A stretch of DNA of 64,000 bases, taken from positions 1 through 64,000 of the forward strand of contig NZ_CP009159.1 in the NCBI RefSeq assembly GCF_000739435.1. The letters are read 5' to 3'. This DNA is from Actinobacillus suis ATCC 33415. Its GTDB lineage: Bacteria > Pseudomonadota > Gammaproteobacteria > Enterobacterales > Pasteurellaceae. Of this stretch, positions 3,677-49,050 are shown one piece after another. Below the pieces are notes generated by a model that had not been told where the DNA came from, did no database searches, and was given only the letters and a program-made list of their open reading frames with translations. Positions within the stretch are counted from its first letter, which is position 1, and the number at the start of each line of letters is the position of its first letter. The position numbers and the translations under genes were made by a program.

Positions 3677-3711
3677 CATACATTTAAATTTAATTATGTT
3701 ATTTAATTACG

Positions 3712-4278: not shown

Positions 4279-4316
4279 TGTAATTTCCTTTTAGTTTTAG
4301 TGTGAAAGGGGAGAAT

Positions 4317-4368: not shown

Positions 4369-4463
4369 CGATTGCATTTTTGCATAAAATCTTGTATTTA
4401 TCACATCTATTTCCAAAATAAATTCAAACACAACTTTGTACTTTTCAATTTAGGAGCAACACA

Positions 4464-5576: not shown

Positions 5577-5596
5577 TTCGGATTAATTAGAGACGG

Positions 5597-5643
5597 ACAA
5601 GCGGTCGGATTTTGCAAAAAAATTGCAAATTTTGACCGCTTAT
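5597..5643 (+). terminator. Uptake-signal inverted pair forming a hairpin after asd
   Basis: An ACAAGCGGTC uptake word (5597-5606) and its complement GACCGCTT (5633-5640) flank an A/T-rich inverted stretch, giving a long stem followed by T-rich sequence. Head-to-head uptake signals acting as terminators are well known in Pasteurellaceae. A second, shorter hairpin follows at 5656. Confidence 0.7.
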
Positions 5644-5654
5644 TTATTGCAATA

Positions 5655-5684
5655 AAAAGCCCAAGCAACTCTGCTTGGGCTTTA
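5655..5684. terminator. Bidirectional terminator between asd and porin gene
   Basis: A perfect stem AAAGCCCAAGCA / TGCTTGGGCTTT has a short loop and A/T runs on both sides. It lies between the convergent asd (plus) and porin (minus) genes and can end both transcripts. Confidence 0.85.
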
Positions 5685-5705
5685 GCTTTCGATGATTCTC
5701 TGAAA

Positions 5706-6836
5706 TTACCAATAAGCACGGAAACCAACAACTGTTGTATAGTCACGTGATTTATTTACACCACGTGCTACTTTAGCTTCTGGATGTTTAGTGCGAGTAG
5801 CTTGCCATTCTACGAAAAGTTTGGTTTTTAACTGATCAACCACTTTTGGTAAGTAGTATTCGGTACCCACCATAAATTGGTGTTTTCTTTCGTTATTGTC
5901 TCGACCAATCGCACGTTCAAGCTTATTGGTTTTGTAAGCATACATACCGTATGCACGCCAGTCATCAGTTAAACGATGATAAACAAGGGTACGCACTTCT
6001 TTCTCTGTACGTTCATTGCCTTGTACCGATTGGTTTTCGGTTTTACGACGTTCTAAGTCGACACCGAATGTAGTTTTATCGTAAGTATATGCCGCACCGA
6101 CCGAATAAGCATTACGGTTATAAGCCGGTGCCGAACCGATACCTTCAAAACGCTCACGTGAGAAACCGGTCGCCACTTGTACGCTTTGTACGTCATCAAA
6201 TTTATAATTATAAATTGAACCGAAGCCCCATACATTTTTGCGATCTTGGCTTAAATCCATATTCGTATTTGAACGTTGGCTATGACCGCCATAGTACGCA
6301 CCAACTTTTAAGCCTTCAATACCTTTGTAAACATACTGAACTGAACGACGAGCGCCAGAAACTAATAAACCGTCTGATAAGCTTAAGGTATTTGGAATAT
6401 CGGTTTGTTTTACTTCATCGGTGATCACGGTTTGGTTACCATAAGTCACTTCACCATATTGCTTATGACCTAAACCTGCGTAAAGTTGATGAGCATAAAT
6501 ATGATCAAAATCGTGTTGAGAACTAGATACACCACGTTCGTCCGCACCACGTAAACGCCATTCTACACGGCCTAAAGCATAGAAGCCGCTACCAAGTTGT
6601 TGGGTTAAACGGAGGCCGAAACGTGAGCCGTTATTTTGTACCGGTTTATTTACGTGGTTACGAACTGCCGAACCGTTTTGGTAAGTGTCTTTGGCTGAGG
6701 TACTTGTCCATTTTAAACGAGCAGAACCGATAAATTCCGCTTTAGTACCAGTTGAGTCTAAGTTAAATAATTCAACCGCTGATGCCGAGCTTGCCATAAA
6801 AGCAGAAGCGAAAAGGGCTAATGCTGTTTTTTTCAT
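5706..6836 (-). CDS. Outer-membrane porin (general trimeric porin family)
   Basis: This is a beta-barrel protein that lets small hydrophilic solutes cross the outer membrane. A clear signal peptide of 20 residues starts at ATG 6836 (MKKTALALFASAF, cut after ASA). An upstream in-frame start would add ten residues without signal-peptide logic. The 376-residue protein alternates polar and hydrophobic residues through the mature part, contains the SRFGLRLTQQLGSGFYALGRVE segment and repeated GVDLE/GAAYTYDK strand patterns of classical porins, and ends in an aromatic residue (VVGFRAYW) as needed for BAM-dependent insertion. It resembles the Haemophilus P2 / Actinobacillus porins in plan, but the exact porin cannot be named. 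Single-gene unit. Confidence 0.88.
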   Translation of the reverse strand: MKKTALALFASAFMASSASAVELFNLDSTGTKAEFIGSARLKWTSTSAKDTYQNGSAVRNHVNKPVQNNGSRFGLRLTQQLGSGFYALGRVEWRLRGADERGVSSSQHDFDHIYAHQLYAGLGHKQYGEVTYGNQTVITDEVKQTDIPNTLSLSDGLLVSGARRSVQYVYKGIEGLKVGAYYGGHSQRSNTNMDLSQDRKNVWGFGSIYNYKFDDVQSVQVATGFSRERFEGIGSAPAYNRNAYSVGAAYTYDKTTFGVDLERRKTENQSVQGNERTEKEVRTLVYHRLTDDWRAYGMYAYKTNKLERAIGRDNNERKHQFMVGTEYYLPKVVDQLKTKLFVEWQATRTKHPEAKVARGVNKSRDYTTVVGFRAYW

Positions 6837-6919
6837 ATTCACTCCAAATGAAATATAAATCAAAGGCTATAGTTTACTTGGAGTGAAAAATTCAATCAAT
6901 GTGATTTTGTTAGTTTATA

Positions 6920-6947
6920 TTGTGATTGGTTATAATCAGCCTATAAT
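6920..6947 (+). promoter_or_regulatory. Predicted promoter of lpxB
   Basis: TTGTGA (6920-6925), a 16-base spacer and a perfect TATAAT (6942-6947) lie about 40 bases before the lpxB start. A second TATAAT at 6931 overlaps. Confidence 0.55.
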
Positions 6948-6984
6948 AAAAGTAATTAAATGAATAATTAATGAGAGTGAAATT

Positions 6985-8166
6985 ATGATGACAAAAGAAG
7001 CGCCTCTTATTGCTCTAGTTGCCGGTGAGATTTCTGGTGATATTCTTGGTGCCGGGTTGATTAACGCCCTTAAATTACATTATCCGAATGCCCGTTTTAT
7101 TGGAGTTGCTGGCCCGCGAATGATACAAGCCGGTTGTGAAACCTTATTCGATATGGAAGAGCTGGCGGTGATGGGGTTAGCAGAAGTGGTAAAACATTTG
7201 CCTCGTTTGCTCAAACGTCGTAAGCAAGTGATTGAAACAATGCTGGCGGAAAAACCGGATATTTTTATTGGTATTGATGCCCCTGATTTTAATTTAACGG
7301 TTGAAGAAAAACTCAAAGCGAGTGGAATTAAGACTATTCATTATGTTAGCCCATCGGTTTGGGCATGGCGTCAGAGCCGTGTACATAAAATTGCACGAGC
7401 GACCAACTTAGTATTGGCATTTTTACCGTTTGAGAAAGCGTTCTATGATCGTTTTAATGTGCCTTGCCGTTTTATCGGTCATACAATGGCGGATGCGATT
7501 GCGCTAAAGCCGAACCGTTCTGAAGCTTGTGCAGCTTTGGAATTAGATGAAACAAAACGTTATCTTGCAATTTTAGTGGGTAGCCGAGCAAGCGAAGTTG
7601 GCTTTTTAACAGAGCCGTTTTTAAAAGCCGCACAGATTCTTAAACAGAGATATCCGGAATTAGAATTTTTAGTGCCGTTAGTTAATGATAAGCGCATTGC
7701 CCAATTTGAACAGATTAAAGCGCAAATTACGCCGGATCTGGGGGTGAAAATTCTTAAAGGCAATGCTCGCCAAGCGATGATTGCGGCAGAAGCCACCTTG
7801 CTTGCTTCCGGTACTGCGGCGTTAGAAGGAATGTTGTGCAAATCACCGATGGTAGTGGGTTACAAAATGAAAGCTAGCACTTACTGGCTGGCTAAACGTT
7901 TAGTGAAAACTAAATATATTTCCTTACCTAATCTATTAGCGGACGAAATGTTAGTGCCTGAATTAATTCAAGACGAATGTAATCCGGAAAATTTAGCATG
8001 GTATTTGGGTAATTATTTGGCGGATGATGCAGACCATAAAAAACAGCGAAACGAATTAAAACAACGTTTTACTGAATTACATAAACTGATTCAATGTGAT
8101 GCGGATACACAGGCGGCACAAGCGGTGGTCGATGTGTTAGAAGCGGAAACAAGCGGTCAAAATTAA
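6985..8166 (+). CDS. lpxB: Lipid-A-disaccharide synthase
   Basis: LpxB joins UDP-2,3-diacylglucosamine and lipid X to make lipid A disaccharide at the inner face of the cytoplasmic membrane. The 393-residue protein opens with [20 protein letters not shown], the family N-terminus, and has the GIDAPDFNL and [11 protein letters not shown] motifs and the [12 protein letters not shown] donor-site segment of this GT-B enzyme. Two ATGs stand in tandem (6985, 6988); GAGAGTGA lies upstream. Unusually for Enterobacteriaceae but common here, it is not next to lpxA. The last codons run through an uptake signal (8149-8158), giving the C-terminus TSGQN. sohB follows after 29 bases and is probably co-transcribed. 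Confidence 0.97.
8149..8158 (+). repeat. DNA uptake signal inside the lpxB 3' end
   Basis: ACAAGCGGTC, the Apl-type uptake word of Actinobacillus, overlaps the last lpxB codons and reads Thr-Ser-Gly-Gln. One of many copies in the window. Confidence 0.8.
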
Positions 8167-8195
8167 TTCTATTTTTACAAAAGGAATCTCACAGA

Positions 8196-9248
8196 ATGTG
8201 GAAAGAAATTTTACTTAATTACGGTATTTTCTTATTGGAATTACTTACGATATTCGGCATTGTTGCGGTTGTTGTTATGTTGATTTTAGAAGCGAAAAAA
8301 CAACCTGAAAATGGCGTAATTTCCATGACGAATTTAACCGAAAAATATAAAGAACAGCAAAAAGCTTTAGCGAGTTTTTTCCTCAGCGAAGAAGAGCAGA
8401 AACAGCAGGAAAAAGATGAGAAAAAAGCCGCTAAAGAAAAAGCGAAAGCAGAGAAAAAACGCCTTAAAGAAGGCGGAGAGAAAACCGAAGCGGAAAAATC
8501 TCGCCTATTCGTTTTGAAATTTAACGGTGACGTACAAGCCAGTGCGGTTAATGCATTAGCTAAAGAGATTAGTGCGGTACTATCACTAGCTAAAGCGGAA
8601 GATGAAGTGTTGCTTAAATTGGAAAGCCCGGGTGGTGTAGTTCACGGCTATGGCTTAGCGGCGTCACAGTTACAGCGTTTACGTGATCACAATATTCCAC
8701 TCACGGTTGCAGTAGATAAAGTAGCGGCGAGCGGCGGCTATATGATGGCGTGTGTGGCGAATAAAATTGTTTCGGCACCTTTTGCGATTATCGGTTCAGT
8801 TGGTGTGGTGGCACAAGTGCCGAATATCCATCGTTTACTGAAAAAACACGATATTGATGTAGATGTAATGACTGCCGGTGAGTATAAACGCACAGTCACT
8901 TTAGTCGGTGAAAATACTGAGAAAGGCAAACAAAAATTCCAGCAAGAATTGGAAGAAACTCATGAATTATTCAAACAATTTGTGGTACAAAATCGTCCGC
9001 AATTAGAGATTGAAAAAATTGCTACCGGCGAACATTGGTTCGGTAAACAAGCATTGGCGCTTAATTTAGTCGATGAAATTTCAACAAGTGATGATTTATT
9101 GTTGAATGCGGTAAAAGAAAAAGAGGTGATTGAGCTAAGTTTCAAAGAGAAGAAAAATCTGACTCAGCGTTTAGGCGTACAAATGGAGCAATCAGTAGAA
9201 AATATTATTGCGAAGTTACTACATAAAAACCGTACACCAATGATGTAA
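8196..9248 (+). CDS. sohB: Inner-membrane serine protease SohB (S49 family)
   Basis: SohB is a membrane-bound signal-peptide-peptidase-like protease facing the periplasm. A TM segment covers about residues 8-31. A highly charged Lys/Glu/Ala linker (about 67-101) then leads into the S49 domain. The nucleophile is Ser179 in VAASGGYMMA and the likely general-base lysine is Lys231 in AGEYKRT, matching the Ser-Lys dyad of the family. Length 350 is usual. It lies 29 bases downstream of lpxB and ends at a strong bidirectional hairpin shared with convergent mutM. Confidence 0.94.
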   Translation: MWKEILLNYGIFLLELLTIFGIVAVVVMLILEAKKQPENGVISMTNLTEKYKEQQKALASFFLSEEEQKQQEKDEKKAAKEKAKAEKKRLKEGGEKTEAEKSRLFVLKFNGDVQASAVNALAKEISAVLSLAKAEDEVLLKLESPGGVVHGYGLAASQLQRLRDHNIPLTVAVDKVAASGGYMMACVANKIVSAPFAIIGSVGVVAQVPNIHRLLKKHDIDVDVMTAGEYKRTVTLVGENTEKGKQKFQQELEETHELFKQFVVQNRPQLEIEKIATGEHWFGKQALALNLVDEISTSDDLLLNAVKEKEVIELSFKEKKNLTQRLGVQMEQSVENIIAKLLHKNRTPMM

Positions 9249-9261
9249 GGTTTAGCTTGAT

Positions 9262-9292
9262 AAAAAAGCGGTCGAATTTGACCGCTTTTTTA
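9262..9292. terminator. Bidirectional terminator between sohB and mutM
   Basis: AAAAAGCGGTC / GACCGCTTTTT form a perfect eleven-base stem with a six-base loop, with A and T runs on either side. It is built from two inverted uptake-signal cores and serves both convergent genes. Confidence 0.9.
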
Positions 9293-9305
9293 CGATTACT
9301 ATGAG

Positions 9306-10127
9306 CTAACGAGGTAGCTTTTGGCAGTGAGGACAGAAATAACTGTTACGCTGCCCGATAATTTTGGCTTCAATCGCTGTGCCGCAGTCATTACAAGCTT
9401 CGCCTTTGCGGCCGTAAACTTGCAACACTTGGGTGAAATAACCCGGTTTCCCGTCCGGTTGAATAAAATCTTTCAGTGTCGTTCCGCCTTGAATAATCGC
9501 TTTAGTCAGCACTTCTTTAATCACTTTCACTAAGCGCTCGCATTGCTTTTCCGTCAGATTTTGCGTAGCAAGCTCCGGATGAATTCCTGCTATAAACAGT
9601 GATTCACAAGCGTAGATATTACCTACACCCACCACGATATCGTTATTCATAATAAAGTTTTTGACTGCCACGGTTTTGTTACGGCTTCGAGTAAATAAAT
9701 ACTCGGCTGTAAATGCTTCGGAAAGTGGTTCCGGTCCTAAGCGAGTAATAAGCTCGTGTTGTTCGGCATTTTGAGTCCACAGCCAACAACCGAATTTACG
9801 TGGATCGTTATAACGTAGAATGGTGCCGTCTTGTGTGATGAGATCAACATGATCATGTGTGCCTGCCGTTTGTTGATTTTCCGGCAAAATACTTAGTGAG
9901 CCGGACATTCCCAAGTGAATCAAAATATCGCCTTGTGTAGTATGTAAAATTAAATATTTGGCACGGCGAGAGAGTGAAACGATTTTTGCACCTTGCATTT
10001 GTTGTAATTCATTGGAAATCGCCCAACGCAATTTATTGGTTCGAATCACAATTTGTTTAATCGTTTTACCTTGTAAATAAGGTTCCACGCCTCGTAAGCT
10101 GGTTTCAACTTCCGGTAATTCAGGCAT
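9306..10127 (-). CDS. mutM: Formamidopyrimidine-DNA glycosylase
   Basis: MutM (Fpg) removes 8-oxoguanine and other oxidised purines and nicks the abasic site. After Met removal, the N-terminus [12 protein letters not shown] provides the catalytic Pro1 and Glu2. The H2TH region ([20 protein letters not shown]) and the C-terminal four-Cys zinc finger (CNDC...CPHC) are complete. ATG 10127 gives 273 aa, the family length; an upstream in-frame ATG at 10157 would bury the catalytic proline and is rejected. A 58-base gap separates it from brnQ, which reads in the same direction upstream. Confidence 0.97.
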
Positions 10128-10185
10128 ATATTTTCTCCAAAGATTTGAGATAAACAAAGGGCAAGGATAACCTTGCCCAAGATAA

Positions 10186-11478
10186 TTATTTCGCTCTTAC
10201 GAAACGACTAAGGATTGCACCAATCAATAATCCGCCAACTGCAAACGGTAGCCACTCCATTGAGTATGCTTTAAGCGGTAAGTTTTCGGTAAAACTTACA
10301 CCAGCAACAGAGAGAATCGATATGATGGTTACCAGAATCAACGAAGTACGTAATGCTAATAATGGAAGCTGTACAAACAGATTCAATAACAGTAAGAAAA
10401 TAACTGACATTGCAATTGGGTAAAGTACCAGTAAAACCGGAATTGATTTACTGATTACCGCACTTAATCCTTGGTTTGCTAAACCAAAACCAATTAAGGT
10501 ACAGATAATTGCATAAGTCTTATAAGAGATTTTCGGGAAAATTTCATTGAAGTATTCGCTTACCGAAACAATCAGTCCAATTGCTGTGGTTAAACAGGCA
10601 AGTGAAACAATCGCACCTAAAAGTGTTCTACCTAAATCACCGAATGCTTGGGTTGCCGCAACGTTCAAGATATAAGTACCTAAATCTTGCTTCTTCGTAG
10701 CTAAATCTGCCACAACTTCAGCAGAAATGGGTAATTTATTACCAATCCAGCCGATAGATAAGTAAATTAACGCTAATAAAATTGCTGCAATTACCCCCGC
10801 CATCGCAGTTTGTTTGCTCAATGCTTTTTCGTTAGAAAAACCTTTGTTTTTAATTGCATTGATCACAATCACCGAGAAGGCAACAGAAGCTAGGGCATCC
10901 ATGGTGTTATAACCGGCTAAGATGCCGTTTACCATTGGTGCTTCCATCACATTGGCGCTTGACGGATTATTTGAGAGTAAAGCGATACCACTGATAACTA
11001 GCGCAAGAATCGCAATTAATAGTAAAGGCGTTAAAATCGAACCGATTCTTTCCACCATTTTTGACGGATTTAAACCAATCCAAATTGCTAATGCAAAATA
11101 GATTAAAGTAAAAAGCAATAGAGAAATCGGCGTTTGTTCGCCTAAAAACGGTAAAATTGCCATTTCGTAAGCGGTTGCCGCTGTACGCGGAATCGCAAAG
11201 AAAGGTCCGATAGTTAAGTAAATCGCTACTAAGAATAATAGAGAAAACCAAGGATGAATACGTTGTAAGGCTGCTTTATAACCACCTTTATAAGACGCAC
11301 TTACAATAATACCGAGTAACGGTAAACCAACGCCGGTAATGACGAATCCAATAGTTGCAATCCAGAAATCCGCACCGCTTTCAAAACCTAATTTCGGCGG
11401 AAAAATTAAATTGCCCGCCCCAAAGAAAATGGCAAACAGCATAAAGCCGACCACAAATGTATTTTTAGTCATATACAT
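10186..11478 (-). CDS. brnQ: Branched-chain amino acid carrier BrnQ
   Basis: BrnQ is a sodium-coupled symporter for leucine, isoleucine and valine in the inner membrane. The 430-residue protein is hydrophobic throughout, with about twelve membrane segments, and starts with the family hallmark [26 protein letters not shown] second ATG at 11472 (MTKNTF) gives the N-terminus more typical of relatives; neither has a strong ribosome site. It lies downstream of fabG on the same strand but beyond a terminator, so it is probably a separate unit. Confidence 0.93.
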
Positions 11479-39263: not shown

Positions 39264-39310
39264 TTGGTAAAAAATGGGAAAATTTAACCGCTTGTAAGCT
39301 TTAATTATAA

Positions 39311-39341
39311 GAAAGCCATCCGTGATAGGATGGCTTTTTTG
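39311..39341. terminator. Bidirectional terminator between ligA and the polysaccharide operon
   Basis: AAAGCCATCC-GTGAT-AGGATGGCTTTTTT. Perfect ten-base stem with A and T flanks; serves ligA and wzc, which converge. Confidence 0.9.
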
Positions 39342-39347
39342 TATCGG

Positions 39348-41453
39348 TTATAGATAGCGATTATTAGCGGTCGGTTTTGTGCAGTTTAGTACAAAACCAT
39401 TGAGTTTCACGCCTGTTCTCGCAAAATGCTGGAGTGTCGCTTCTAACTCTGGACGAGTCGTTTCGCCAAATCTGCCGACTAGGATCGCAGTGCCAGCATA
39501 GCGGCCGATAATTGCTGCATCACTTGCACTTAATACCGGCGGCGTATCAATAATGACTAAGTCATAGTTGGTATTCGCCCAAGATAACAGCTGTTGGAAA
39601 CGCTCGCCGAGTAAATATTCAGAGAGATTTTCCGTGATTTTACCTTTTGAGATCACATCAAAATGCGCATTAGCCGCAGGGTTGACGACAGATTCAAAGG
39701 GTAATGATTGAGTTAAGGCTTCACCAATACCATTTTTATTTTCGGTATCAAACATTTTGTCTAAATAGCTATAACGTGTATCGACATCAATCAGTAAAAC
39801 TTTTTTGCCTGATTTCGCCACGATATTGGCTAGGTTGGTTGCGATAAAGGTATTGCCGGTGTCATATGAAGCACTTGAAACCATTAACACCTTATTTTTC
39901 GCCTCTTGCATTGCGAAGTGAATATCTGCTCGCAAGCCTCGTAACGCTTCAATTGCTGCATCTGTCGGTACATTTTCCGATAATAATTTCGCATTATTTA
40001 TATTTAAGCGCCCTTGCTTGAACTTATCAAATGAGAAGTTCGGCTGCTTTTTGCTATTCGGTATGCTGGTATAAGCGGTTAGCCCTAATTTTTTCACCAT
40101 AGCCGGTGATTGAATTGTACGGTTAAATAGCGCTTTAATTAACGAGATGATAAGCCCTAATACGAATCCTAAAAATCCGGATAGTAATGTTGAAACCGCT
40201 TTGCTTAATACGCTTGGATTCGGTAGCACTTGAGCCGCATCTAAAATACGAGCATTTCCGACCGCACCGGCTCTAACTACATCCAGCTCCTGCAATTTAT
40301 TAGAAAGCTGCATATAGATTTGCTGATCCACTTCAAGCTCACGGTTTAAGCTCACCATATCTCGTTGGGTTGCCGGTAAATTTTCCATTTCCTTCGTGAT
40401 TTTAGCTTTTTCATCACGTAAGGTTTTTTTCTGGTTTAACAAGGCAACGTAAGTCGGGTGGCGTTTAGTAAACTTCTGAGCAATCTCGCCTTCTTTAATG
40501 GTTAAGGCGTTTAAATCCGCATCAATACGTACCAAGCGGTCTAAATAAGACTTAGCTTCTAAATCTAAGTCGATAGAGCTATTGTCTTCTTTATACTTAT
40601 TCAGACTGTTTTCCGCTTCGACTAATTTTTCTCTTACTTCCGGTAAGCGATTTTGCAGTAGCTCTAAGCTCTTAGAGGCTTCTGCCGCATTTTTATGGGC
40701 ATTTTGTTGCACATAACTTTCGGAAACACTTTTAATGATATTTTTGATATCACGCTGGCTTTCACCTCGGATCGCAATTTCGATCACACCGGTTTGTTTA
40801 CCTTTTTCATTAATGTGTAAACGTTGTTGCAATCTTTCAATTGCCGCCAGTTCAGCGATCTTTTTCAAACTAAAGCGTTGTCCTGCATTGCCGTGCAAGA
40901 TAGACACTTTGAATTTAAGTTGGTCGTTAGCGTAAGAACGATTGACCAAGCCTTCTAAAATTAGTGTTTCGCCATCTTTGTGATAAAGGCGATATTCCCC
41001 CTTATTTGCCCCGATTTCGAGAATTAATTCTTCTAGGTTCTCATTTTCAGGTATAAATTCAGCAACCAAAATATCCGGCGTATAGCCTGCAAGATTCTCA
41101 AGTCCTTTACTGATAAAAGGAATTGAGCGTATCGGTTTTACTTCTGTTGTCAGATTGAGATCTTCCACGGTTTTTGCCAGCACCAAGCGAGATTTAATCA
41201 CCTCGATTTCAGTATTTGGCGAAGACTCTTGGGTAAAACCGTCGGACAATTCTTTTAAAATATTACCCGACTTCTTTTCATCAACCTGCACAACCGCATT
41301 CGCAGTATAAACAGGTGTAGAAAGAATACTGTAACTTAAGCCTAATGCGGCACAAACAACGGTGCAGAATAGGAGCAGATACTTATTATCAAGTAATACA
41401 TTGATGAATCGCATTAAATCGATCTCATCATTTTTAACGTCTTTATTATTCAT
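39348..41453 (-). CDS. wzc: Wzc-like polysaccharide co-polymerase / BY-kinase, degenerate ATP site
   Basis: Wzc controls chain length and export of group 1-type capsules and exopolysaccharides with Wza. The 701-residue protein has TM1 (about 25-46), a large periplasmic coiled-coil region, TM2 (about 419-440), an EALRGLR interface motif (502-508) and a cytoplasmic kinase-like domain with Walker A' LLIDVDTR (553-560) and Walker B LVIIDTPP (632-639). The Walker A reads SSASYDTGNT (526-535): Asn534 stands where the lysine belongs (codon at 39852-39854). The C-terminus NCTKPTANNRYL has one tyrosine instead of the usual cluster. Kinase function is therefore probably lost or altered, while the co-polymerase part looks intact. 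Last gene of the operon. Confidence 0.9.
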   Translation of the reverse strand: MNNKDVKNDEIDLMRFINVLLDNKYLLLFCTVVCAALGLSYSILSTPVYTANAVVQVDEKKSGNILKELSDGFTQESSPNTEIEVIKSRLVLAKTVEDLNLTTEVKPIRSIPFISKGLENLAGYTPDILVAEFIPENENLEELILEIGANKGEYRLYHKDGETLILEGLVNRSYANDQLKFKVSILHGNAGQRFSLKKIAELAAIERLQQRLHINEKGKQTGVIEIAIRGESQRDIKNIIKSVSESYVQQNAHKNAAEASKSLELLQNRLPEVREKLVEAENSLNKYKEDNSSIDLDLEAKSYLDRLVRIDADLNALTIKEGEIAQKFTKRHPTYVALLNQKKTLRDEKAKITKEMENLPATQRDMVSLNRELEVDQQIYMQLSNKLQELDVVRAGAVGNARILDAAQVLPNPSVLSKAVSTLLSGFLGFVLGLIISLIKALFNRTIQSPAMVKKLGLTAYTSIPNSKKQPNFSFDKFKQGRLNINNAKLLSENVPTDAAIEALRGLRADIHFAMQEAKNKVLMVSSASYDTGNTFIATNLANIVAKSGKKVLLIDVDTRYSYLDKMFDTENKNGIGEALTQSLPFESVVNPAANAHFDVISKGKITENLSEYLLGERFQQLLSWANTNYDLVIIDTPPVLSASDAAIIGRYAGTAILVGRFGETTRPELEATLQHFARTGVKLNGFVLNCTKPTANNRYL

Positions 41454-41480: not shown

Positions 41481-42638
41481 TTACCAATTCTTAATACGAA
41501 GCGTACCTTCGGTTAAATCGTTAAAGCCGGTAATTGTCGGTAATACTTGGGTGATCACACGGTTCCAGCGGGTAAGTGGTGCTGTTGTAACATAAACGAC
41601 ATCGTATGGTTTCAGGAAGAACTCGGTACCTAAAATATAAGAAGTCGGGTTGGTTACGTCTAACTGGTAGATATTTGCCACTTTTTCAATTTGGTTGCCG
41701 TTATTATCTTCAACCACTTGTTTTGTACCTCGTTCTCCACGGATAACGAAAATACCCGTTGCATCGGCAGCGAGCTTATCAATGCCGCCGCTAGCAGAAA
41801 TCGCTTCAGTAAGGCTCATGCCATTACGTCCGATTTTTAATAATTGCGGCGCTTGTACCTCACCGATAACAAATACTTTTTGTGCGTCATTACGTGGAAT
41901 ATGAATAATATCGCCGTCTGTTAGCAAGCGATTTTGCGTAAGATCGCCTTTCTGTAACAGAGCTTCTACTGATACGATTTCATCTTGTCCACGATGAGTA
42001 ATTGTGACGTTATTCCAATCTGCATCGGTAGAAAGTCCGCCAGCCTTATTAATCGCATCAAGCAGTGTTAAAGGCACATTGCTGATAAATTGTTGCCCCG
42101 GATTTTTTACTTCTCCGGTGACGTAAGCTTTTTTAGATTGGAAAGAAGCTACCGTCACTTCCACTTGCGGCTCCATAATATAAGAGGCAAGGCGGCTAGT
42201 GATGCGATCTCGAATTTGGTTCACGGTTAAGCCGTTTACTTTAATTGTGCCGACATAAGGATAAAAAATTGTACCGTTAGCATGGACTTGGTTACCGCTA
42301 TCCGCTGCCGAACGATAAGTTCCTGCCGGTGTGGTTAGCTCAGGGTGATCCCAAACGGTAACATTTAATACGTCACCGATCCCAACGTGATATTGATAAG
42401 CCTTGATTTGCTGATCCAATGCGGGATTGTTCTGTGCGCTGGCCTTGAAAGGTGCGAGTTCTTTCAATAATTGCGGGGTAATCAGATAAGCATCAACCGC
42501 TTTATCGACATCAAGTACTTCACCCTTTACTTCTACATTTTTATAACGAATCGGAGAATAACTACTCGGAAAAAGAGAGCAACTCGCCAATGCTAAAGAA
42601 GCGGTAAGAATTGAGAGTTTTTTTACTAATCTATTCAT
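41481..42638 (-). CDS. wza: Outer-membrane polysaccharide export lipoprotein Wza
   Basis: Wza forms the octameric outer-membrane channel for polysaccharide export. The 385-residue protein has a lipoprotein signal with Cys20 (LTASLALASCS). Next come the poly-export domain (YHVGIGDVLNVTVWDHPELTTPAGTYRSAADSG) and SLBB-type repeats (KVFVIGEVQAPQLL, KAYVTGEVKNPGQQ), and it ends RIKNW in the amphipathic barrel-forming helix. It lies 27 bases upstream of wzc, the standard wza-wzc order, but the small phosphatase gene wzb that usually stands between them is missing. Confidence 0.94.
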   Translation of the reverse strand: MNRLVKKLSILTASLALASCSLFPSSYSPIRYKNVEVKGEVLDVDKAVDAYLITPQLLKELAPFKASAQNNPALDQQIKAYQYHVGIGDVLNVTVWDHPELTTPAGTYRSAADSGNQVHANGTIFYPYVGTIKVNGLTVNQIRDRITSRLASYIMEPQVEVTVASFQSKKAYVTGEVKNPGQQFISNVPLTLLDAINKAGGLSTDADWNNVTITHRGQDEIVSVEALLQKGDLTQNRLLTDGDIIHIPRNDAQKVFVIGEVQAPQLLKIGRNGMSLTEAISASGGIDKLAADATGIFVIRGERGTKQVVEDNNGNQIEKVANIYQLDVTNPTSYILGTEFFLKPYDVVYVTTAPLTRWNRVITQVLPTITGFNDLTEGTLRIKNW

Positions 42639-42680: not shown

Positions 42681-43889
42681 TTAGCGGGCACCGAAACCGG
42701 TTAACATGGTTTGGATCGTCTTAAAGAAAATTAATACGTCAAGCGCAAAAGAGAAATGTCTAATATAGTAGAAGTCATGTTCAATTTTCACTTGCGTTTC
42801 ATCTTCGGTTGCAGCATAGCCGTGCGTTACTTGCGCCCAGCCGGTAATACCCGGTTTTACGATATGACGATAGCTATAAAACGGAATATTTTGGTCGAAT
42901 TGTTCCACAAATGCTTTTTGTTCCGGACGAGGGCCGATTAATGCCATATCACCCTTAAGTACATTGAAAAATTGCGGTAATTCATCAATACGTGTTTTAC
43001 GAATAAATTTACCGACCCGAGTAACTCGCATATCACCAACGCTTGCCAATTTCGCACCGTCTTTCTCAGAGTCTTTACACATACTGCGGAATTTATAAAT
43101 ACTAAATTCTTCACCTTTCTGACCAATACGTTTTTGAATAAATAGTACCGGTCCTTCGCTTTCTAATTTAATCAGAATAGCGGTAATCAGCATTACCGGT
43201 AAGACAATTGGGAAGCTAAGTAAAACCAATACTGAATCAATAAACTGCTTGGTTCTTAAATAGGCTACTGAAGGTTGAAGTGAACCAAGGTCATTTTCAT
43301 ACATATGAGTAATTTTAGTACGTCCGGTAAGTGATTCGCGGATCTGGCGCACGTTATAAGTATCAACACCTGCTAGAGTTTGTTTTGAGATAAAACGTTC
43401 CCACTCATCGGTTAATTTTGGTGAGTACAGGTCTGCAACAAGTGTTTGTATATTTGAAACGACTTGATTCGGATCTTCAAGTTTTACCCAATTTACATTT
43501 GGGATTTGTTCAAGATTTTTGGCTTTACCTAACGGAATATAGTGAATAGTCGGATTTGGACCGCTATATTTCATTCGGTTTGACCAATAATCTAAACCAA
43601 TCACTAATAGGATATGCCAAACAAAATAAGCAACAGAATAAGTTACTTGGAATAAAGTGATGACAACTAAACTAAAGCTATAGGTTACGATTACGCTTGG
43701 TAATAAAATGAGATTCTCATGTTTACCTGGGTAATTTGATAATTTATGTGAAAGTAATAAGTGGAATACATAGCACACTGCACCGATAAAAATACTGTGC
43801 GAAATAAAACCTTCCGGTAAATCGGCAAATATATTTAATATGAATGCAGGTAGAAAAATGGCAATTACGCCACAAATAATAAATCTCAT
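42681..43889 (-). CDS. Undecaprenyl-phosphate sugar-1-phosphate transferase (initiating enzyme)
   Basis: This enzyme starts the repeat unit by moving a sugar-1-phosphate from a UDP-sugar to undecaprenyl phosphate. The 402-residue protein has four to five N-terminal membrane helices, a central soluble region, then the bacterial sugar transferase domain: KRIGQKGEEFSIYKFRSM, RVTRVGKFIRKTRIDELPQF, GDMALIGPRPEQKAF and KPGITGWAQVTHGYAATEDE. It is of the WbaP/WcaJ type; whether it uses galactose or glucose cannot be told from sequence alone, although galE lies nearby. Lies between the GT4 gene (one base) and wza. Confidence 0.9.
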   Translation of the reverse strand: MRFIICGVIAIFLPAFILNIFADLPEGFISHSIFIGAVCYVFHLLLSHKLSNYPGKHENLILLPSVIVTYSFSLVVITLFQVTYSVAYFVWHILLVIGLDYWSNRMKYSGPNPTIHYIPLGKAKNLEQIPNVNWVKLEDPNQVVSNIQTLVADLYSPKLTDEWERFISKQTLAGVDTYNVRQIRESLTGRTKITHMYENDLGSLQPSVAYLRTKQFIDSVLVLLSFPIVLPVMLITAILIKLESEGPVLFIQKRIGQKGEEFSIYKFRSMCKDSEKDGAKLASVGDMRVTRVGKFIRKTRIDELPQFFNVLKGDMALIGPRPEQKAFVEQFDQNIPFYSYRHIVKPGITGWAQVTHGYAATEDETQVKIEHDFYYIRHFSFALDVLIFFKTIQTMLTGFGAR

Positions 43890-43890: not shown

Positions 43891-45024
43891 TTAGCTCTCC
43901 TCTAGAATAGAAATCAGTTTGTCGTTGACTTTGGCAATATCAAATTTTTGTTCGGCCATTTTGCGGCTCTCAATGCCCATATTGAGAATTTCCTGTTTGT
44001 TTCCAATGAAATAGCGCATCGCTTGCGCAAGCTCATCCACCGAATATACCGGTACCAGTAAACCGTTTTTATGATCTTCAACAGTTTCTCGGCATCCCGG
44101 TACATCTGTTGTAATAACAGCTCGACCGATTGCCATTGCCTCTTGAGTACTTCTTGGCACGCCTTCTCGATAGGATGGCAATACGAATATCGAACTGTTA
44201 GCAATCACTTCCGGGACGTTATTTACATAACCAAGATATTCGATAACACCGTGTTTGATATAATCGTCCAATGCATCTTTTGATATTGCAAAAGGGTTAC
44301 CTTCATCAAAGCCACCAATAATAGTGAAGCGCGTAGTTGGATGTTCCGCTTTGATTTTTTTTGCTGCTTCAAGATATTCAAAAATCCCTTTTTCTTTTAA
44401 TAGGCGAGCGATAAATAAGAAAGACACTTCTTTTGTGATATCTACTTCTTGATAACCAAATCGTTCCAGATCCACTCCAATCCCTCCTAGAATGGCGGTA
44501 GATTTTGTCGAAATACGATAAGTATCGATTAAATCTTTTTTATCATCCGGATTTAAGAAAATAAGTTTATCCAAGAAGGGGAGAGAAATTTTATAAAGCA
44601 AGACTTGGATTGCTTGCACAATCTTCGCTTTTCGTGTTTTTCCTTCTTTATAAGGCGTAAACGCATTACCTAAGCCTTCAATCATACCGATCACTTTAGG
44701 TACTTGAGCAAGTTTTGCAGCTAAAGAACCAAAAATAACCGGTTTGATAAAGGTGCTGAAGACGATATCAGGTTGAAGCTGTTTTAATTCTTTCATAAGC
44801 AGATAAACCGCTTTTAAATCTTTAACAGGGTTCATGCCTTTTGGATTAATAAAATGCGCTTTAGGAATTGCTCCCCAACCGCTGACTTCTTTTTGTTCCT
44901 TCTCCGTATAGCCATAGGCATAACAGTAAACTGTATAGCCTCTACTCACTAATTCAATGACTAATTCTTTACGGAAATTAGTAATCATGGAGGCAACATT
45001 GCCGATAAGTACGATCTTTTTCAT
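43891..45024 (-). CDS. Glycosyltransferase family 4
   Basis: This is a 377-residue GT-B-fold retaining glycosyltransferase. N-terminal acceptor half MKKIVLIGNVASMITNFRKELVIELVSRG; donor half with GGIGVDLERFG, FLFIARLLKEKGIFEYLEAAKKIK and the E-x7-E-type segment PSYREGVPRSTQEAMAIGRAVITTDVPGCRE. It adds a sugar to the lipid-linked repeat unit; donor and linkage unknown. Close relatives of this N-terminal pattern act early, on the first sugar, in many loci (inference). One base from the next gene, so tightly co-translated. Confidence 0.9.
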   Translation of the reverse strand: MKKIVLIGNVASMITNFRKELVIELVSRGYTVYCYAYGYTEKEQKEVSGWGAIPKAHFINPKGMNPVKDLKAVYLLMKELKQLQPDIVFSTFIKPVIFGSLAAKLAQVPKVIGMIEGLGNAFTPYKEGKTRKAKIVQAIQVLLYKISLPFLDKLIFLNPDDKKDLIDTYRISTKSTAILGGIGVDLERFGYQEVDITKEVSFLFIARLLKEKGIFEYLEAAKKIKAEHPTTRFTIIGGFDEGNPFAISKDALDDYIKHGVIEYLGYVNNVPEVIANSSIFVLPSYREGVPRSTQEAMAIGRAVITTDVPGCRETVEDHKNGLLVPVYSVDELAQAMRYFIGNKQEILNMGIESRKMAEQKFDIAKVNDKLISILEES

Positions 45025-45030: not shown

Positions 45031-46077
45031 CTACATAAATAGAACATTTCTGTAATCGAAACAGCACAAAGCATAAGGCGAATAATTTATCCAAATGAAA
45101 AACAGCATTGTATTTTCAATAATTAGAGCAATTAAAAATAATGCTTTTAATTCAAAGGATTTTAAATATTCAAAAAATTTTCCGAAGACAGCGATGTCGA
45201 AAATAACAAAATAAAGATTAAAACGGTCAGCAATGGTTGAATAAACAAAGCTAACGGGTAAGAATATTAGAATTAAAATACACATTAAATCTAATAAACG
45301 ATAGGTATTCGGGTAGCTTTCCACAAAAATATGCCGTTGCCATAAATAAACGACAATAGGTAATAAGTGGAGTGCTATCCTAAATACCGCACCTGCTGAG
45401 GATAATTCACCAGAGGTATATGCACTTTCTCCTTGTGAAATCATATAAATGATATAAAACGAGAAAAGAATGACGAATAAAGAATATAAATAAAATATTT
45501 TATTCTTATAAAATTCCGAGTTAATTAATGGTAAAAATGCGAGGAAAATAATTGCAGATTTATGAAATAAATAGGCAAGGGCAATCCACACGAAAAATTT
45601 CCATTTCTTCGGGTTTGGTGCAAATAAGGTTGAAAATGCATAACATACTAGACCTATTGCGGCAGATTGACGGGTATACCCCATACCTACGGCAATAATG
45701 GTATAAGAAAATGCAATCAGAAATGCTAGGAACAGATGTTTGAATTGGCGTGATAATTGATAAAATCCTATTATCAAACAGAACGCACAAACAAAGTTAA
45801 CAAATGAAATCGAATAATTTAATTGATGGGCTAACCAGTTAAAAAATCCATATCCATATTCTGATGAACCGGCGACTTTAAAAAAATTGTCTGCTTTATA
45901 TAAGTCAAAGATATATAGGTAACTAAACCAGTCTCCACCGACCTCAAAACGACCGCCAATAAAAATAAAGATAAATGCGGAGAAAATTAATAAGAAAATT
46001 TCTCCACCTTTATTTTTAGGAAGGTTTATGAGGTTCATGACAACAATAGTTGCCCAAATATACCAATAAATAAACAT
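45031..46077 (-). CDS. wzy: EpsG-family polysaccharide polymerase (Wzy)
   Basis: This is a 348-residue integral membrane protein with about ten to twelve helices. The N-terminal region FIFIGGRFEVGGDWFSYLYIFD matches the EpsG/Wzy signature (RxxxGxDxxxY type), and YTIIAVGMGYTRQSAAIGL is the second conserved block. It links lipid-bound repeat units into polymer in the periplasm. Codons are A/T-rich compared with wza and wzc, as usual for locus-specific Wzy genes. Only one such gene is present, so it is the sole polymerase candidate. Confidence 0.85.
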   Translation of the reverse strand: MFIYWYIWATIVVMNLINLPKNKGGEIFLLIFSAFIFIFIGGRFEVGGDWFSYLYIFDLYKADNFFKVAGSSEYGYGFFNWLAHQLNYSISFVNFVCAFCLIIGFYQLSRQFKHLFLAFLIAFSYTIIAVGMGYTRQSAAIGLVCYAFSTLFAPNPKKWKFFVWIALAYLFHKSAIIFLAFLPLINSEFYKNKIFYLYSLFVILFSFYIIYMISQGESAYTSGELSSAGAVFRIALHLLPIVVYLWQRHIFVESYPNTYRLLDLMCILILIFLPVSFVYSTIADRFNLYFVIFDIAVFGKFFEYLKSFELKALFLIALIIENTMLFFIWINYSPYALCCFDYRNVLFM

Positions 46078-46086: not shown

Positions 46087-46980
46087 TTATTTGCTTTCTA
46101 AAATGTTGGTCAAAAATTCTGTAAAATGACAATTGTCTAGAATTGCTTCCCAAGAATACATAGACATATCTATGCGATGATATTTATCGAGTGATAAATC
46201 ACATTGCTTAGCATTTATGTTTTCAAGCCAAATTGGTTCGTAGCCAATTTTTTTACAAAATTCTTCAACCCAGTAATAACGATTTGAAATCAAGCGTAAT
46301 CCTGACGCTAAATATTCCAATGTCTTTGTGCTAGTTTGAATATTAAACGGATACACATCAGGTGTGTAATTTAATCCAAAACGTGCATTAGCATAAATTT
46401 GCGGCAAGTCAGTTCGGTTGACTTTACCGGTCATATTGATACCTGAGGCTTTTAAAATCGCATAGGTTTCATTATCAACTTCACCAACCACTACCACTTT
46501 GTAGTATTTGGCAAGATTTACCAGACTTTGTATTAAGCCTATTCTTCCAATAATTGATCCAGCGTAAACCACATCATATTCGGGATGCGGATTCGGACTC
46601 TGAAATAAGGCGGAATCAATCCCCATATCCCGATATATGTAAGGAAGGCTATCGCAGAAACCGAACTCTTTTTTTACAATTTCATTAAGAAATATGCGCC
46701 CTTGGGGCTTTGTATTAGCACATTTTTTAATGAAATTTTTTATGCTGGAATATTTAGGCATAGAAAGGCTTTGATATTCATGCACTTCTAATGCCGATTG
46801 TGGCGCATATCGTTTCCAAAAAGGGCGCATTCCCAAGAAATAGATATTAATATCATTATCGGGAGCTAAGTTTTCTTCGTAATCTAACTGAACTAAATGA
46901 TTGCGTTTAGTTAAATATTCTTTATAAGCGAAGGCCTCTGGGGTATAGGCCTGCCTTTTTAACGTAATGCCGATTTTCAA
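46087..46980 (-). CDS. Glycosyltransferase (GT-B fold, probably family 4-like)
   Basis: This 297-residue protein is shorter than most GT4 enzymes. C-terminal pattern VVVVGEVDNETYAIL, ARFGLNYTPDVYPFNIQTSTKTLEYLASGLRLISNRYYWVEEF resembles the donor-binding half of GT-B enzymes, with Glu in TLEYLASG at the usual site. The N-terminal half (MKIGITLKRQAYTPEAFAYKEYL) is reduced. Acceptor and donor unknown. A/T-rich codons. Part of the polysaccharide operon between wzx and wzy. Confidence 0.75.
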   Translation of the reverse strand: MKIGITLKRQAYTPEAFAYKEYLTKRNHLVQLDYEENLAPDNDINIYFLGMRPFWKRYAPQSALEVHEYQSLSMPKYSSIKNFIKKCANTKPQGRIFLNEIVKKEFGFCDSLPYIYRDMGIDSALFQSPNPHPEYDVVYAGSIIGRIGLIQSLVNLAKYYKVVVVGEVDNETYAILKASGINMTGKVNRTDLPQIYANARFGLNYTPDVYPFNIQTSTKTLEYLASGLRLISNRYYWVEEFCKKIGYEPIWLENINAKQCDLSLDKYHRIDMSMYSWEAILDNCHFTEFLTNILESK

Positions 46981-46993: not shown

Positions 46994-48178
46994 CTAAATA
47001 ATGCCAAGCTTAATATTTTCTCTTCGATAATAATTCCACACTAAGGCTTTAATCATATTAACGCCTAGTGCAGTGGAAATTGCTGCTCCGATAATGCCGT
47101 ATAGATGAGCTAAGAATACGCATAAGAGAGCGCTAATACAGAAAACAATGGCTTGATATTTCAATAATATCTTTTTATTTTCCGTATAGCTGGCGAGTGT
47201 CATTCCAAACCCCCATATTTGAGAAAGTGATATTCCCAGCATTAAAATCAGTAATGAAACATATCCTTCGTATGTATTTTCAACACCGTAAAGATAAAAC
47301 AAGAAATCACCAATTACCGCACTTACTGCGACAATTGAGAAACTAAATAAGCATAAGAAAATCGTGTATTTTTTAGTGTAGCTATAAAGTTTCGTATATT
47401 CCTGTTGTTTATATAAATTGACGATATTTGGTGTTACTACCGCCATTACCGAGGCGGAAAAGTAAGAAATTAATGCCATAAAACTGTAACAAATGACATA
47501 GATCCCCACGGCTTTATCATCAACAAAGTAAGACAAAATGATACGGTCAAATTGTGCATTCAGTAGCACGAAAAGTGCCGATAATGTAGGAATTGCACCG
47601 TATTGCAACAAATCTTTATAGTGATAAGCGGTCGATTTCGCGTCATTTTTTACATATTTTTTCGTTAAGCACGCAGCAAATAAAAAGAGTGCGAAAGTGG
47701 CATAAAAATATAACCAGAAGAAATCTACGTCTTCTATAAAATAGCTAAATACCAAGATAAAAATTAGTGGTAACAAATAACGTAACCCGTCATCAATCGA
47801 AGTATTGAGATACTGCATCTGGTTTACGATAAAAATCGAGGATTTACAGTAGAAAAAAGAGTAGAACAGCACTACAAATCCTATATACCAAAGCCCGAAT
47901 TCAAACTGAAACAGCCAAACGGAAAAGACGGTAATCAAGCATGAAGTTAATGTCCAAAAACCGAGGAATTTCGGGCTAATGGTTCGTTGGTTAAACTCAA
48001 TAATGTGAACATAATTCCCCCAGTTGGCAATTAATGAAAGGATCAAAATATAGGTGGTTACTAACCCATATTGACCTAACACATCCACCCCGAAATATCG
48101 GGAAATTGCCATACCTAGCAGTAATGATGATCCCGCACCAATCGCTTTTAGTAAAAGGAGGAAAAATACTTTTTTCAT
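46994..48178 (-). CDS. wzx: Polysaccharide repeat-unit flippase (Wzx)
   Basis: This is a 394-residue MATE/MVF-type flippase with about twelve helices. N-terminus LLKAIGAGSSLLLGMAISRYFGVDVLGQYGLVTTYI and the helix 7 region FVLLNAQFDRIILSYFVDDKAVGIYVICYSFMALI match the polysaccharide synthesis O-antigen flippase pattern. It moves the undecaprenyl-linked repeat unit across the inner membrane. A/T-rich codons, typical of Wzx genes. The stop of the upstream gene is two bases away. Confidence 0.88.
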   Translation of the reverse strand: MKKVFFLLLLKAIGAGSSLLLGMAISRYFGVDVLGQYGLVTTYILILSLIANWGNYVHIIEFNQRTISPKFLGFWTLTSCLITVFSVWLFQFEFGLWYIGFVVLFYSFFYCKSSIFIVNQMQYLNTSIDDGLRYLLPLIFILVFSYFIEDVDFFWLYFYATFALFLFAACLTKKYVKNDAKSTAYHYKDLLQYGAIPTLSALFVLLNAQFDRIILSYFVDDKAVGIYVICYSFMALISYFSASVMAVVTPNIVNLYKQQEYTKLYSYTKKYTIFLCLFSFSIVAVSAVIGDFLFYLYGVENTYEGYVSLLILMLGISLSQIWGFGMTLASYTENKKILLKYQAIVFCISALLCVFLAHLYGIIGAAISTALGVNMIKALVWNYYRRENIKLGII

Positions 48179-48180: not shown

Positions 48181-49050
48181 TTATTCAATAAATGTCACGT
48201 TATTAGAGTGGGACATACTTTGTTCATATACGCCCTTGCATTTATAGTATCCATTGTTATAAATGCTTAATTTTTTATTTAGCAGATAAGCACCGACTGC
48301 TACATGTAATCTATCGGTTTTAACTTCTTCGTATAAATCAATGAGTTTTAAAAATTGTTTAGCGCTATAGAGTGAAGCTTGATAATTGTCAGTTCCAAAA
48401 CTAGCAACAAGTGATAAGTCATTAGCCAAGCTTCTTTTTACATTTAAATTTTGGTTGCTCTCTTTATCGGTGCGCATAGCATTAATTTGAGAGGTAAATA
48501 GTGCACGTAAGCGGTGGAAATTGATCAATATTTTACGAATAATATTTTTACTCGTTAATTTAATTTTAAAATGAGGGTTGCTTGTCAAAATTTGCATTGG
48601 ATTTATACAAAATGCCATATCGTCAGCCAGATAAACGGCTTTAGCATTAGATATATTTTGACAATATTCAAAACTATATTTTTCTCGACAAAAGATAATG
48701 CTATCTTCCGGTAAATTTGAAATTAATTCATCAATGCCACGAATAGAATGCGGTAAAATAATTAATTTTAACTTTAGGTTTAAGTTGATTAATGCTTTTA
48801 AAAAATTTGGAGTTGAATTCCATTCAGGAACTAAACAACCACCACCGCCAATTAATACAATGTCGTTATCTTTTAATTGACTGATTTTGTCCTGAGAGAT
48901 TAAAGAAAACTTCAGGTTAAATTGTTGTGCTAAAGTATAAAAGCCCATATCTATCAACGCATCACCTGCATTCCCTCCATTAGGATAGTAAAAAATGTTT
49001 CCTTGTTGAGATTCAGATAATGCTTTAAAAATAGTATGTAAATTAGACAT
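48181..49050 (-). CDS. Polysaccharide pyruvyltransferase family protein
   Basis: The 289-residue protein has the start GNIFYYPNGGNAGDALIDMGFYTLAQQ, the glycine-rich VLIGGGGCLVPEW segment, and C-terminal VKTDRLHVAVGAYLLNKKLSIYNNGYYKCKGVYEQS, the plan of the PF04230 pyruvyltransferase family. Members move pyruvate from phosphoenolpyruvate to a sugar, making ketals that give the polymer negative charge; some family members have other functions, so this is probable rather than certain. First gene of the operon on the minus strand; 506 bases separate it from divergent galE. Confidence 0.78.
   Translation of the reverse strand: MSNLHTIFKALSESQQGNIFYYPNGGNAGDALIDMGFYTLAQQFNLKFSLISQDKISQLKDNDIVLIGGGGCLVPEWNSTPNFLKALINLNLKLKLIILPHSIRGIDELISNLPEDSIIFCREKYSFEYCQNISNAKAVYLADDMAFCINPMQILTSNPHFKIKLTSKNIIRKILINFHRLRALFTSQINAMRTDKESNQNLNVKRSLANDLSLVASFGTDNYQASLYSAKQFLKLIDLYEEVKTDRLHVAVGAYLLNKKLSIYNNGYYKCKGVYEQSMSHSNNVTFIE

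What the first reader, a model, noticed from the sequence alone, without database searches (positions are those of the whole stretch)
39348..41453. Wzc-like kinase without the Walker A lysine and without a tyrosine cluster
Seen: Walker A reads SSASYDTGNT with Asn534 where the BY-kinase motif needs Lys (GKT), while Walker A', Walker B, the EALRGLR interface motif and both membrane segments are intact. The C-terminal tail has a single Tyr. Known: in E. coli Wzc the Walker A lysine is needed for autophosphorylation, the tyrosine cluster is the site, and Wzb resets it. Here wzb is also missing. Inference: the locus has lost the phosphorylation cycle or uses a different control of chain length, and the loss of kinase, target and phosphatase together suggests a consistent change rather than a chance mutation.
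Basis: partly seen in the sequence, partly recalled or inferred. Interest (0 to 1): 0.7.

Follow-up and report, generated by a model that had tools for sequence, protein, structure and literature searches.

The report
Capsule regulator with a disabled kinase
A protein that helps bacteria assemble surface sugar chains normally works as an enzyme that is switched by phosphate tags; in Actinobacillus, and by different mutations in related bacteria, the enzyme part looks dead yet is still preserved, which suggests the sugar-export machine can run without that switch.

Summary
The Wzc-like protein at 39348-41453(-) has Asn534 where E. coli Wzc has Lys540, keeps Walker A', Walker B and EX2RX2R, and ends one residue after the first tail tyrosine. 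It is not an error: the other three intact genes of the genus (87-96% identity) share Asn534 and the short tail. The genome is one contig with one Wzc and no LMW tyrosine phosphatase.

The wider result goes beyond the finding. Of 17 Pasteurellaceae wzc genes (140 genomes), 13 lack at least one catalytic residue, by different lesions (GNT; GRH plus VTAP; VSAP with or without GKG). None of the 13 has wzb in the flank read; the four intact ones all do. Outside the family, 177 of 177 loci read are intact. Dead kinase domains remain under purifying selection (dN/dS 0.05-0.16) but are about four times looser relative to the periplasmic part than live ones.

Best reading: a pseudokinase ring that keeps the co-polymerase assembled without a phosphorylation cycle, like the V. 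cholerae VpsO K551A mutant. Pseudokinase co-polymerases are known; this repeated loss together with wzb absence appears new. No experiment was done.

The parts
39348..41453 (-). Wzc-like PCP-2a polysaccharide co-polymerase with a predicted pseudokinase domain (701 aa)
   Evidence: Wzz PF02706 (9-99), WZC_N PF23607 (126-198), GNVR PF13807 (362-441), AAA_31 PF13614 (532-643); 518.8 bits to E. coli K30 Wzc
39852..39854 (-). codon AAT, Asn534, in place of the Walker A lysine (K540 of E. coli Wzc)
39837..39878 (-). altered Walker A segment SSASYDTGNTFIAT (residues 526-539)
   Evidence: G527, P530 and K534 of the intact proteins are replaced in 4 of 4 genus members
39774..39800 (-). Walker A' VLLIDVDTR (552-560), D556, D558 and R560 kept
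39537..39554 (-). Walker B IIDTPP (634-639), D636 kept
39930..39950 (-). EALRGLR (EX2RX2R, residues 502-508), octamer interface motif, kept
   Evidence: E502, R505, R508 invariant in alignment A1
39351..39365 (-). truncated tyrosine tail, ending N-N-R-Y-L (697-701)
39306..39343 (.). inverted repeat with T-run between ligA and wzc ends, likely terminator
   Evidence: repeat; terminator role is inference
41481..42638 (-). wza, outer-membrane export protein, 27 bp upstream of wzc with no wzb between
42681..43889 (-). initiating sugar transferase (PF02397)
43891..45024 (-). glycosyltransferase (PF00534)
45031..46077 (-). Wzy-type polymerase candidate (PF14897 EpsG family)
   Evidence: polymerase role is inference from family and place
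46087..46980 (-). glycosyltransferase-like protein (PF13524, just below its cut-off)
46994..48178 (-). Wzx-type flippase candidate (PF01943)
48181..49050 (-). polysaccharide pyruvyl transferase (PF04230)

Best explanation
The gene encodes a Wzc-type co-polymerase whose cytoplasmic tyrosine-kinase domain has become a pseudokinase. Shown: the Walker A lysine and the tyrosine cluster are gone in all intact copies of the genus that were found, no LMW phosphatase gene is present, and the predicted fold, octamer-interface motif and surrounding operon are kept and constrained. Inferred: the domain no longer phosphorylates but still forms the cytoplasmic ring that assembles the periplasmic arms with Wza and Wzy. 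The machine therefore sits in the unphosphorylated, assembled, exporting state, and polymer output is set by expression and intrinsic assembly rather than by a kinase/phosphatase cycle. Wzb became useless once there was no phosphotyrosine to remove.
For: Lysine and tail lost in 4 of 4 intact genus members, and the lysine also in the broken A. ureae copy. dN/dS against G000 0.045-0.062 for wzc and 0.017-0.100 for the other seven operon genes. Kinase-domain dN/dS 0.052-0.100 in the genus. 34 of 51 highly conserved kinase-domain positions kept, including E502, R505, R508, D556, D558, R560, D636. Model close to solved Wzc K540M chains and to the Wzc kinase domain (3la6, TM 0.86-0.89 by target). 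Family-wide match of lesions with wzb absence: 0 of 13 dead genes and 4 of 4 intact ones have a phosphatase beside wzc. Relaxed constraint in four dead pairs (kinase/PCP dN ratio 2.19-2.62) against a median of 0.59 in 31 live pairs, Mann-Whitney p 0.002. Published precedents: VpsO K551A in V. cholerae has no phosphorylation, higher oligomers and more polymer, while an ExxRxxR mutant makes none (PMC7485978, passages); E. coli Wzc K540M forms stable octamers and a continuous channel with Wza (PMC8285477 passages; PMC12881504 section 8 and passages).
Against: In E. coli K30 the authors hold that both kinase and phosphatase activity are needed (PMC8285477), so a locked octamer might not export there. 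In VpsO, mutating tail tyrosines also disrupted kinase-domain oligomers, and K551A protein was less abundant (PMC7485978); a tail-less protein may therefore assemble less well than K551A. No phosphorylation, oligomer or polymer measurement was found for this protein. The kinase domain is less constrained than in active relatives, and two of 31 live pairs have ratios above all dead ones (3.26 and 3.35). The AU test does not reject one clade for the dead genes (p 0.124), so wzb may have been lost once rather than repeatedly. Of 84 outside loci with intact kinases 4 have no phosphatase ORF in the flank, so wzb absence alone does not mark a dead kinase.
Confidence: 0.66

Rival explanations
1. The kinase domain still binds Mg-ADP or ATP without its lysine and acts as a nucleotide-gated conformational switch that replaced phosphorylation.
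For: Solved E. coli K540M proteins carry Mg-ADP (titles; PMC12881504), and removing Mg2+ with EDTA gave further conformations of the whole complex (PMC12881504). In Actinobacillus the aspartates of Walker A' and B are kept in 4 of 4 proteins.
Against: Related dead lineages also lost the Walker B Asp (D636 to S or T), so such binding is probably not needed in all of them. No binding data.
Confidence: 0.2
2. The gene is decaying: the pathway is on its way out and Asn534 is an early step.
For: In the A. ureae assembly seven of the eight genes of this locus are in pieces. The kinase domain is relaxed compared with live ones.
Against: Whole locus intact and syntenic in four species; all eight genes under strong purifying selection at dS up to about 2; Asn codon fixed.
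Confidence: 0.07
3. The protein is still an active kinase using another residue, or is phosphorylated by a different kinase.
For: Walker A' and B are intact and one tail Tyr is conserved in 4 of 4.
Against: No lysine gained in the P-loop of the genus (one search lists all genus-conserved lysines of the domain; the nearest, 547, 550 and 551, are Lys, Arg or Gln in relatives too). No other protein above the TIGR01007 cut-off in the genome and no phosphatase of the two families tested.
Confidence: 0.07

Closest known systems
E. coli Wzc (PCP-2a tyrosine autokinase), structures 7nhr, 3la6, 9r64
   Same: Same full-length architecture, EX2RX2R, Walker A' and Walker B; wza upstream of wzc
   Different: No Walker A Lys, no tyrosine cluster, no Wzb; scores 634 bits against a cut-off of 1068 for NCBIfam Wzc NF008568, a cut-off that many relatives with intact motifs also miss
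EcpK/EpsV (Myxococcus xanthus) and HfsB/HfsA (Caulobacter) BY pseudokinase co-polymerases, PMC12004946
   Same: Kinase fold without catalysis or Tyr tail, proposed scaffold for a PCP-2 (abstract, introduction, sections 9 and 10 read)
   Different: Those pseudokinases are separate proteins, EcpK lacking conserved Walker motifs; here the domain is fused, keeps Walker A' and B, and has the lysine lesion plus a short tail
Fused PCP-2 pseudokinases of Cuthbertson et al. 2009 (S. meliloti SMc01795, Brucella ceti, Mesorhizobium japonicum, V. vulnificus VV1_2305), as cited in PMC12004946
   Same: Co-polymerase and pseudokinase in one polypeptide
   Different: The citing paper does not mention Pasteurella, Actinobacillus or Haemophilus; a look-up of the 2009 paper under the DOI I recalled for it found nothing held, so its own list and the lesions of those proteins could not be checked
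Vibrio cholerae VpsO K551A laboratory mutant, PMC7485978
   Same: Catalytic lysine lost, ExxRxxR kept; phosphorylation lost, oligomers and polymer increased (passages)
   Different: A laboratory mutant with its tail and phosphatase present; here the change is natural, fixed in the genus, and tail and phosphatase are absent

Membership tests
Active Wzc-type BY-kinase (PCP-2a) | Wzz, GNVR, two membrane helices and C-terminal BY-kinase fold | tested here: met
Active Wzc-type BY-kinase (PCP-2a) | Walker A GK[ST] | tested here: not met
   GNT in 4 of 4 intact genus members; GK[ST] in 177 of 177 loci read outside the family (84, 4, 89)
Active Wzc-type BY-kinase (PCP-2a) | Walker A' and Walker B aspartates | tested here: met
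   D556, D558, D636 kept in 4 of 4
Active Wzc-type BY-kinase (PCP-2a) | C-terminal tyrosine cluster | tested here: not met
   One Tyr in the last 20 residues, 4 of 4
Active Wzc-type BY-kinase (PCP-2a) | EX2RX2R oligomer motif | tested here: met
   Invariant in A1, kept in 4 of 4
Active Wzc-type BY-kinase (PCP-2a) | Cognate LMW tyrosine phosphatase (Wzb) | tested here: not met
   PF01451 absent from own genome and from all 9 genus genomes searched
Active Wzc-type BY-kinase (PCP-2a) | Autophosphorylation | not testable with these tools
   Needs the protein
BY pseudokinase PCP-2 | BY-kinase fold lacking a catalytic residue and the Tyr-rich tail | tested here: met
BY pseudokinase PCP-2 | Pseudokinase on a separate protein (EcpK/HfsB type) | tested here: not met
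   Fused in one 701-aa ORF; matches the fused type cited in PMC12004946
BY pseudokinase PCP-2 | Required for polymer without phosphorylation | not testable with these tools
   Needs a deletion strain; constraint is indirect support

The most novel reading that the evidence does not exclude
In Actinobacillus, phosphorylation control of polysaccharide export has been replaced by nucleotide sensing: the lysine-free domain still holds Mg-ADP through the conserved Walker A' and B aspartates and gates assembly of the Wza-Wzc channel by cellular ADP/ATP or Mg2+, while the sister Pasteurellaceae lineages that also lost Walker B have become purely structural rings. The family would then show successive stages from kinase to nucleotide switch to scaffold.
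Probability: 0.15. Interest if true: 0.75.

Novelty: new variant of a known kind. Interest (0 to 1): 0.58.

Why it matters
Whether Wzx/Wzy export needs a phosphorylation cycle is not settled: E. coli work holds that both kinase and phosphatase are required (PMC8285477, passages), V. cholerae work finds that kinase activity inhibits (PMC7485978, passages). Here is a natural series within one bacterial family in which catalytic residues were lost by different lesions while, in Actinobacillus, the pathway stayed under selection, with live sister proteins as controls. It makes the question testable with native proteins. It also warns that such proteins can be annotated as tyrosine kinases: this one passes the TIGR01007 'tyrosine autokinase' cut-off (130 against 108 bits).

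Tried and rejected
Sequencing error at 39852-39854: rejected. Decayed duplicate beside a working copy: rejected. A different phosphatase type: PF19567 absent; other classes, such as dual-specificity phosphatases, were not searched. Relocated catalytic lysine: no P-loop lysine gained in the genus. One common origin for all dead genes: the PCP tree puts an intact gene (G098) beside the Actinobacillus clade (97/93), but the AU test does not reject one dead clade (p 0.124), while it rejects one clade of the four intact genes (p 0.017). The residue losses are separate either way, because Lys534 is kept in the VSAP group and Asp636 in Actinobacillus.

Paper searches that could have shown this in Pasteurellaceae listed no paper whose title or start of abstract describes it; searches for pseudokinase and phosphorylation-independent co-polymerases gave PMC12004946. 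A 2024 review says Glaesserella parasuis capsule loci contain wza, wzb and wzc (PMC11481780, passages), which fits the intact type, but I could not match that species to a genome here.

The first dN/dS script stopped on an error after 15 pairs; redid the comparison on disjoint pairs. The first conserved-residue script stopped after its table and was completed. One search rechecked coordinates and counts for the report. The viral structure library, pdb_via, viral contigs, phage and plasmid collections and RNA tools were not used.

Full report
What is there. The ORF at 39348-41453(-) encodes 701 aa with Wzz, WZC_N, GNVR and AAA_31 matches. It aligns over residues 7-698 with E. coli K30 Wzc (518.8 bits); Asn534 falls on position 540, the lysine that is Met in the solved K540M protein. 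Walker A', Walker B and EX2RX2R are intact; the tail ends N-N-R-Y-L. It lies in a Wzx/Wzy-type operon: wzc, wza, initiating transferase, glycosyltransferase, EpsG-family polymerase candidate, a weak glycosyltransferase match, flippase candidate, pyruvyl transferase.

Not an error, not a duplicate. The genome is a single contig of 2,501,598 bases with one Wzc. A scan with TIGR01007 gave two further hits below its cut-off; of the pieces matched, one scores as ApbC and the other passes no NCBIfam cut-off. PF01451 and PF19567 gave no match. In 140 Pasteurellaceae genomes five of the nine genus genomes hold the gene. Four have it intact (the window's and three at 87-96% identity); all four read TGNT with codon AAT amid synonymous differences, and end NRY plus one residue. 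The fifth, A. ureae (matched to by contig and position), keeps TGNT but its frame is broken just after it. Seven of the eight genes of that operon are in pieces in this draft assembly, with only the second glycosyltransferase in one open frame; whether some breaks are assembly errors was not checked.

The family picture. Of 17 Pasteurellaceae genomes with wzc (15 with an intact frame, 2 broken), four read GKS with a Walker B Asp and 4-5 tyrosines in the last 20 residues. The other 13 carry lesions: GNT (5, all in the genus), GRH with Walker B VTAP (3), GKG with VSAP or ISAP (3), GKS with VSAP (2). All four intact genes have an LMW phosphatase gene between wza and wzc. None of the 13 has one in the flank read, and in 12 of the 13 wza is the next of the searched genes upstream; for the broken G016 copy no wza was found in the flank. 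Six dead-kinase genomes have a PF01451 gene elsewhere (G015-G018, G044, G045); in genus g4 such a gene is in 9 of 9 genomes, five of them without wzc, so it is probably not Wzb. PF01451 is absent from all nine Actinobacillus genomes searched.

Controls outside the family. In 394 genomes of the order, 88 non-Pasteurellaceae Wzc places were listed at E 1e-60 or better and all 88 were read: 88 of 88 have GK[ST] and a Walker B Asp (84). One of the 84, L088, has the first Walker A' Asp replaced by Gly. 80 of the 84 have a phosphatase ORF in the flank, so absence of wzb alone does not imply a dead kinase. In 369 genomes of the class, 117 places other than the window were listed; 89 were read, 89 of 89 intact; the other 28, mostly lower-scoring or partial, were not read. 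More distant co-polymerases, where the cited fused pseudokinases may lie, were not sampled.

Tree. On the periplasmic part only, with kinase columns left out (43 rows: 16 Pasteurellaceae, the broken G016 copy left out, and 27 of the 84 outside), Pasteurellaceae form one clade (100/100). The Actinobacillus clade is sister to the intact G098 (97/93), and the GRH and VSAP genes form one clade (100/100). The state dead/alive needs two changes; one dead clade is not rejected (p 0.124), one intact clade is (p 0.017). Because each dead lineage keeps a residue the other lost, at least two separate inactivations are needed if the listed lesions are what inactivates.

Selection. Across the four intact Actinobacillus species, wzc has dN/dS 0.045-0.062 against G000; the other seven operon genes 0.017-0.100 (Nei-Gojobori with Jukes-Cantor, dS above 1 is near saturation). 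Within wzc, the kinase domain of dead lineages has dN/dS 0.052-0.158 in nine overlapping pairs: clearly constrained. Relative to the periplasmic part it evolves faster: dN ratio 2.19-2.62 in four disjoint dead pairs (two from Actinobacillus, one GRH, one GKG) against a median of 0.59 (0.21-3.35) in 31 disjoint live pairs, Mann-Whitney p 0.002. The pairs were chosen greedily at 70-97.5% identity and are not fully independent in descent. Two live pairs (3.26, 3.35) exceed all dead ones; both have very low periplasmic dN. Of 51 kinase-domain positions at least 95% conserved in 88 intact proteins (84 outside, 4 Pasteurellaceae), Actinobacillus keeps 34, the VSAP group 39, the GRH group 34, and the four intact Pasteurellaceae 41. 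So the domain keeps most of its conserved frame but loses catalytic positions.

Structure. AlphaFold2 on alignment A1 (46 rows) gave mean pLDDT 80.9 and pTM 0.55, with the kinase region from about residue 490 mostly 80-95. The nearest solved structures are Wzc K540M chains, several titled MgADP; the kinase domain matches 3la6 at TM 0.86-0.89 by target. The predicted fold is kept; the model says nothing about activity.

Mechanism. In published work, unphosphorylated Wzc is the octamer and phosphorylation of the tail takes it apart (PMC8285477, passages). The K540M octamer joins Wza in a continuous channel, and the periplasmic part alone does not bind Wza, which the authors take to mean that the kinase ring drives assembly (PMC12881504, section 8 and passages). 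In V. cholerae, VpsO K551A lacks phosphorylation, forms larger oligomers and raises polymer, whereas an ExxRxxR mutant makes none (PMC7485978, passages). The Actinobacillus protein matches the K551A case: lysine lost, ExxRxxR kept. The simplest account is an assembled, always-permitted co-polymerase with no cycle, so the phosphatase is dispensable. Against this, E. coli K30 is said to need both activities, and in VpsO mutating tail tyrosines also disrupted oligomers while K551A protein was less abundant. How chain length or shut-off is controlled without the cycle is not known.

Place among known things. By the membership table it fails three defining features of an active Wzc kinase (Walker A Lys, Tyr cluster, Wzb) and fits a fused BY pseudokinase co-polymerase. 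That kind is known: EcpK and HfsB as separate proteins, and fused cases cited from Cuthbertson 2009 (PMC12004946; abstract, introduction, sections 9 and 10 and passages). What appears new, within searches, is the Pasteurellaceae case, its separate lesions, the matching absence of wzb, and the measured shift of constraint. For most listed papers I saw only title and start of abstract.

Limits. One genome per species; most genomes unnamed; wzb counts by flank rest on about 1.2-1.5 kb; the large protein database was unavailable; no activity data. After checking, confidence in the best explanation was lowered slightly, from 0.68 to 0.66, for the VpsO tail result.

Noticed in passing
L152 (G007, A. 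ureae), 1309-10883: The orthologous polysaccharide locus is broken in A. ureae: wzc, wza, initiating transferase, first glycosyltransferase, polymerase, flippase and pyruvyl transferase are each in pieces; the second glycosyltransferase and galE are open. ligA, the next gene in the other species, is not found in the stretches held.
   Followed up: partly
L007, L008, L015 (G045, G044, G030): Wzc with Walker A GRH and Walker B VTAP: lysine, Ser/Thr and Walker B Asp all replaced while EX2RX2R and the Walker A' Asp pair are kept; a more advanced pseudokinase than the window's.
   Followed up: yes
L009, L012, L013, L016, L017: Wzc with Walker B VSAP/ISAP in place of the Asp motif, three of them also GKG; the tail ends DYFHRYYG in four of five (the broken G016 piece lacks it).
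   Followed up: yes
L088 (G334): A Wzc outside the family with Walker A' reading LLIGADMRKG, the first Asp replaced by Gly; a possible further catalytic variant.
   Followed up: no
L093, L128, L132, L139: Wzc loci with intact motifs but no LMW phosphatase ORF in the flank read; three of the four (L093, L132, L139) are in genomes with another wzc.
   Followed up: no
G000:C1:982315-982734 (L155): A 277-aa frame with a ParA/BY-kinase-like match; the matched 140-aa piece passes no NCBIfam cut-off; identity not settled.
   Followed up: partly
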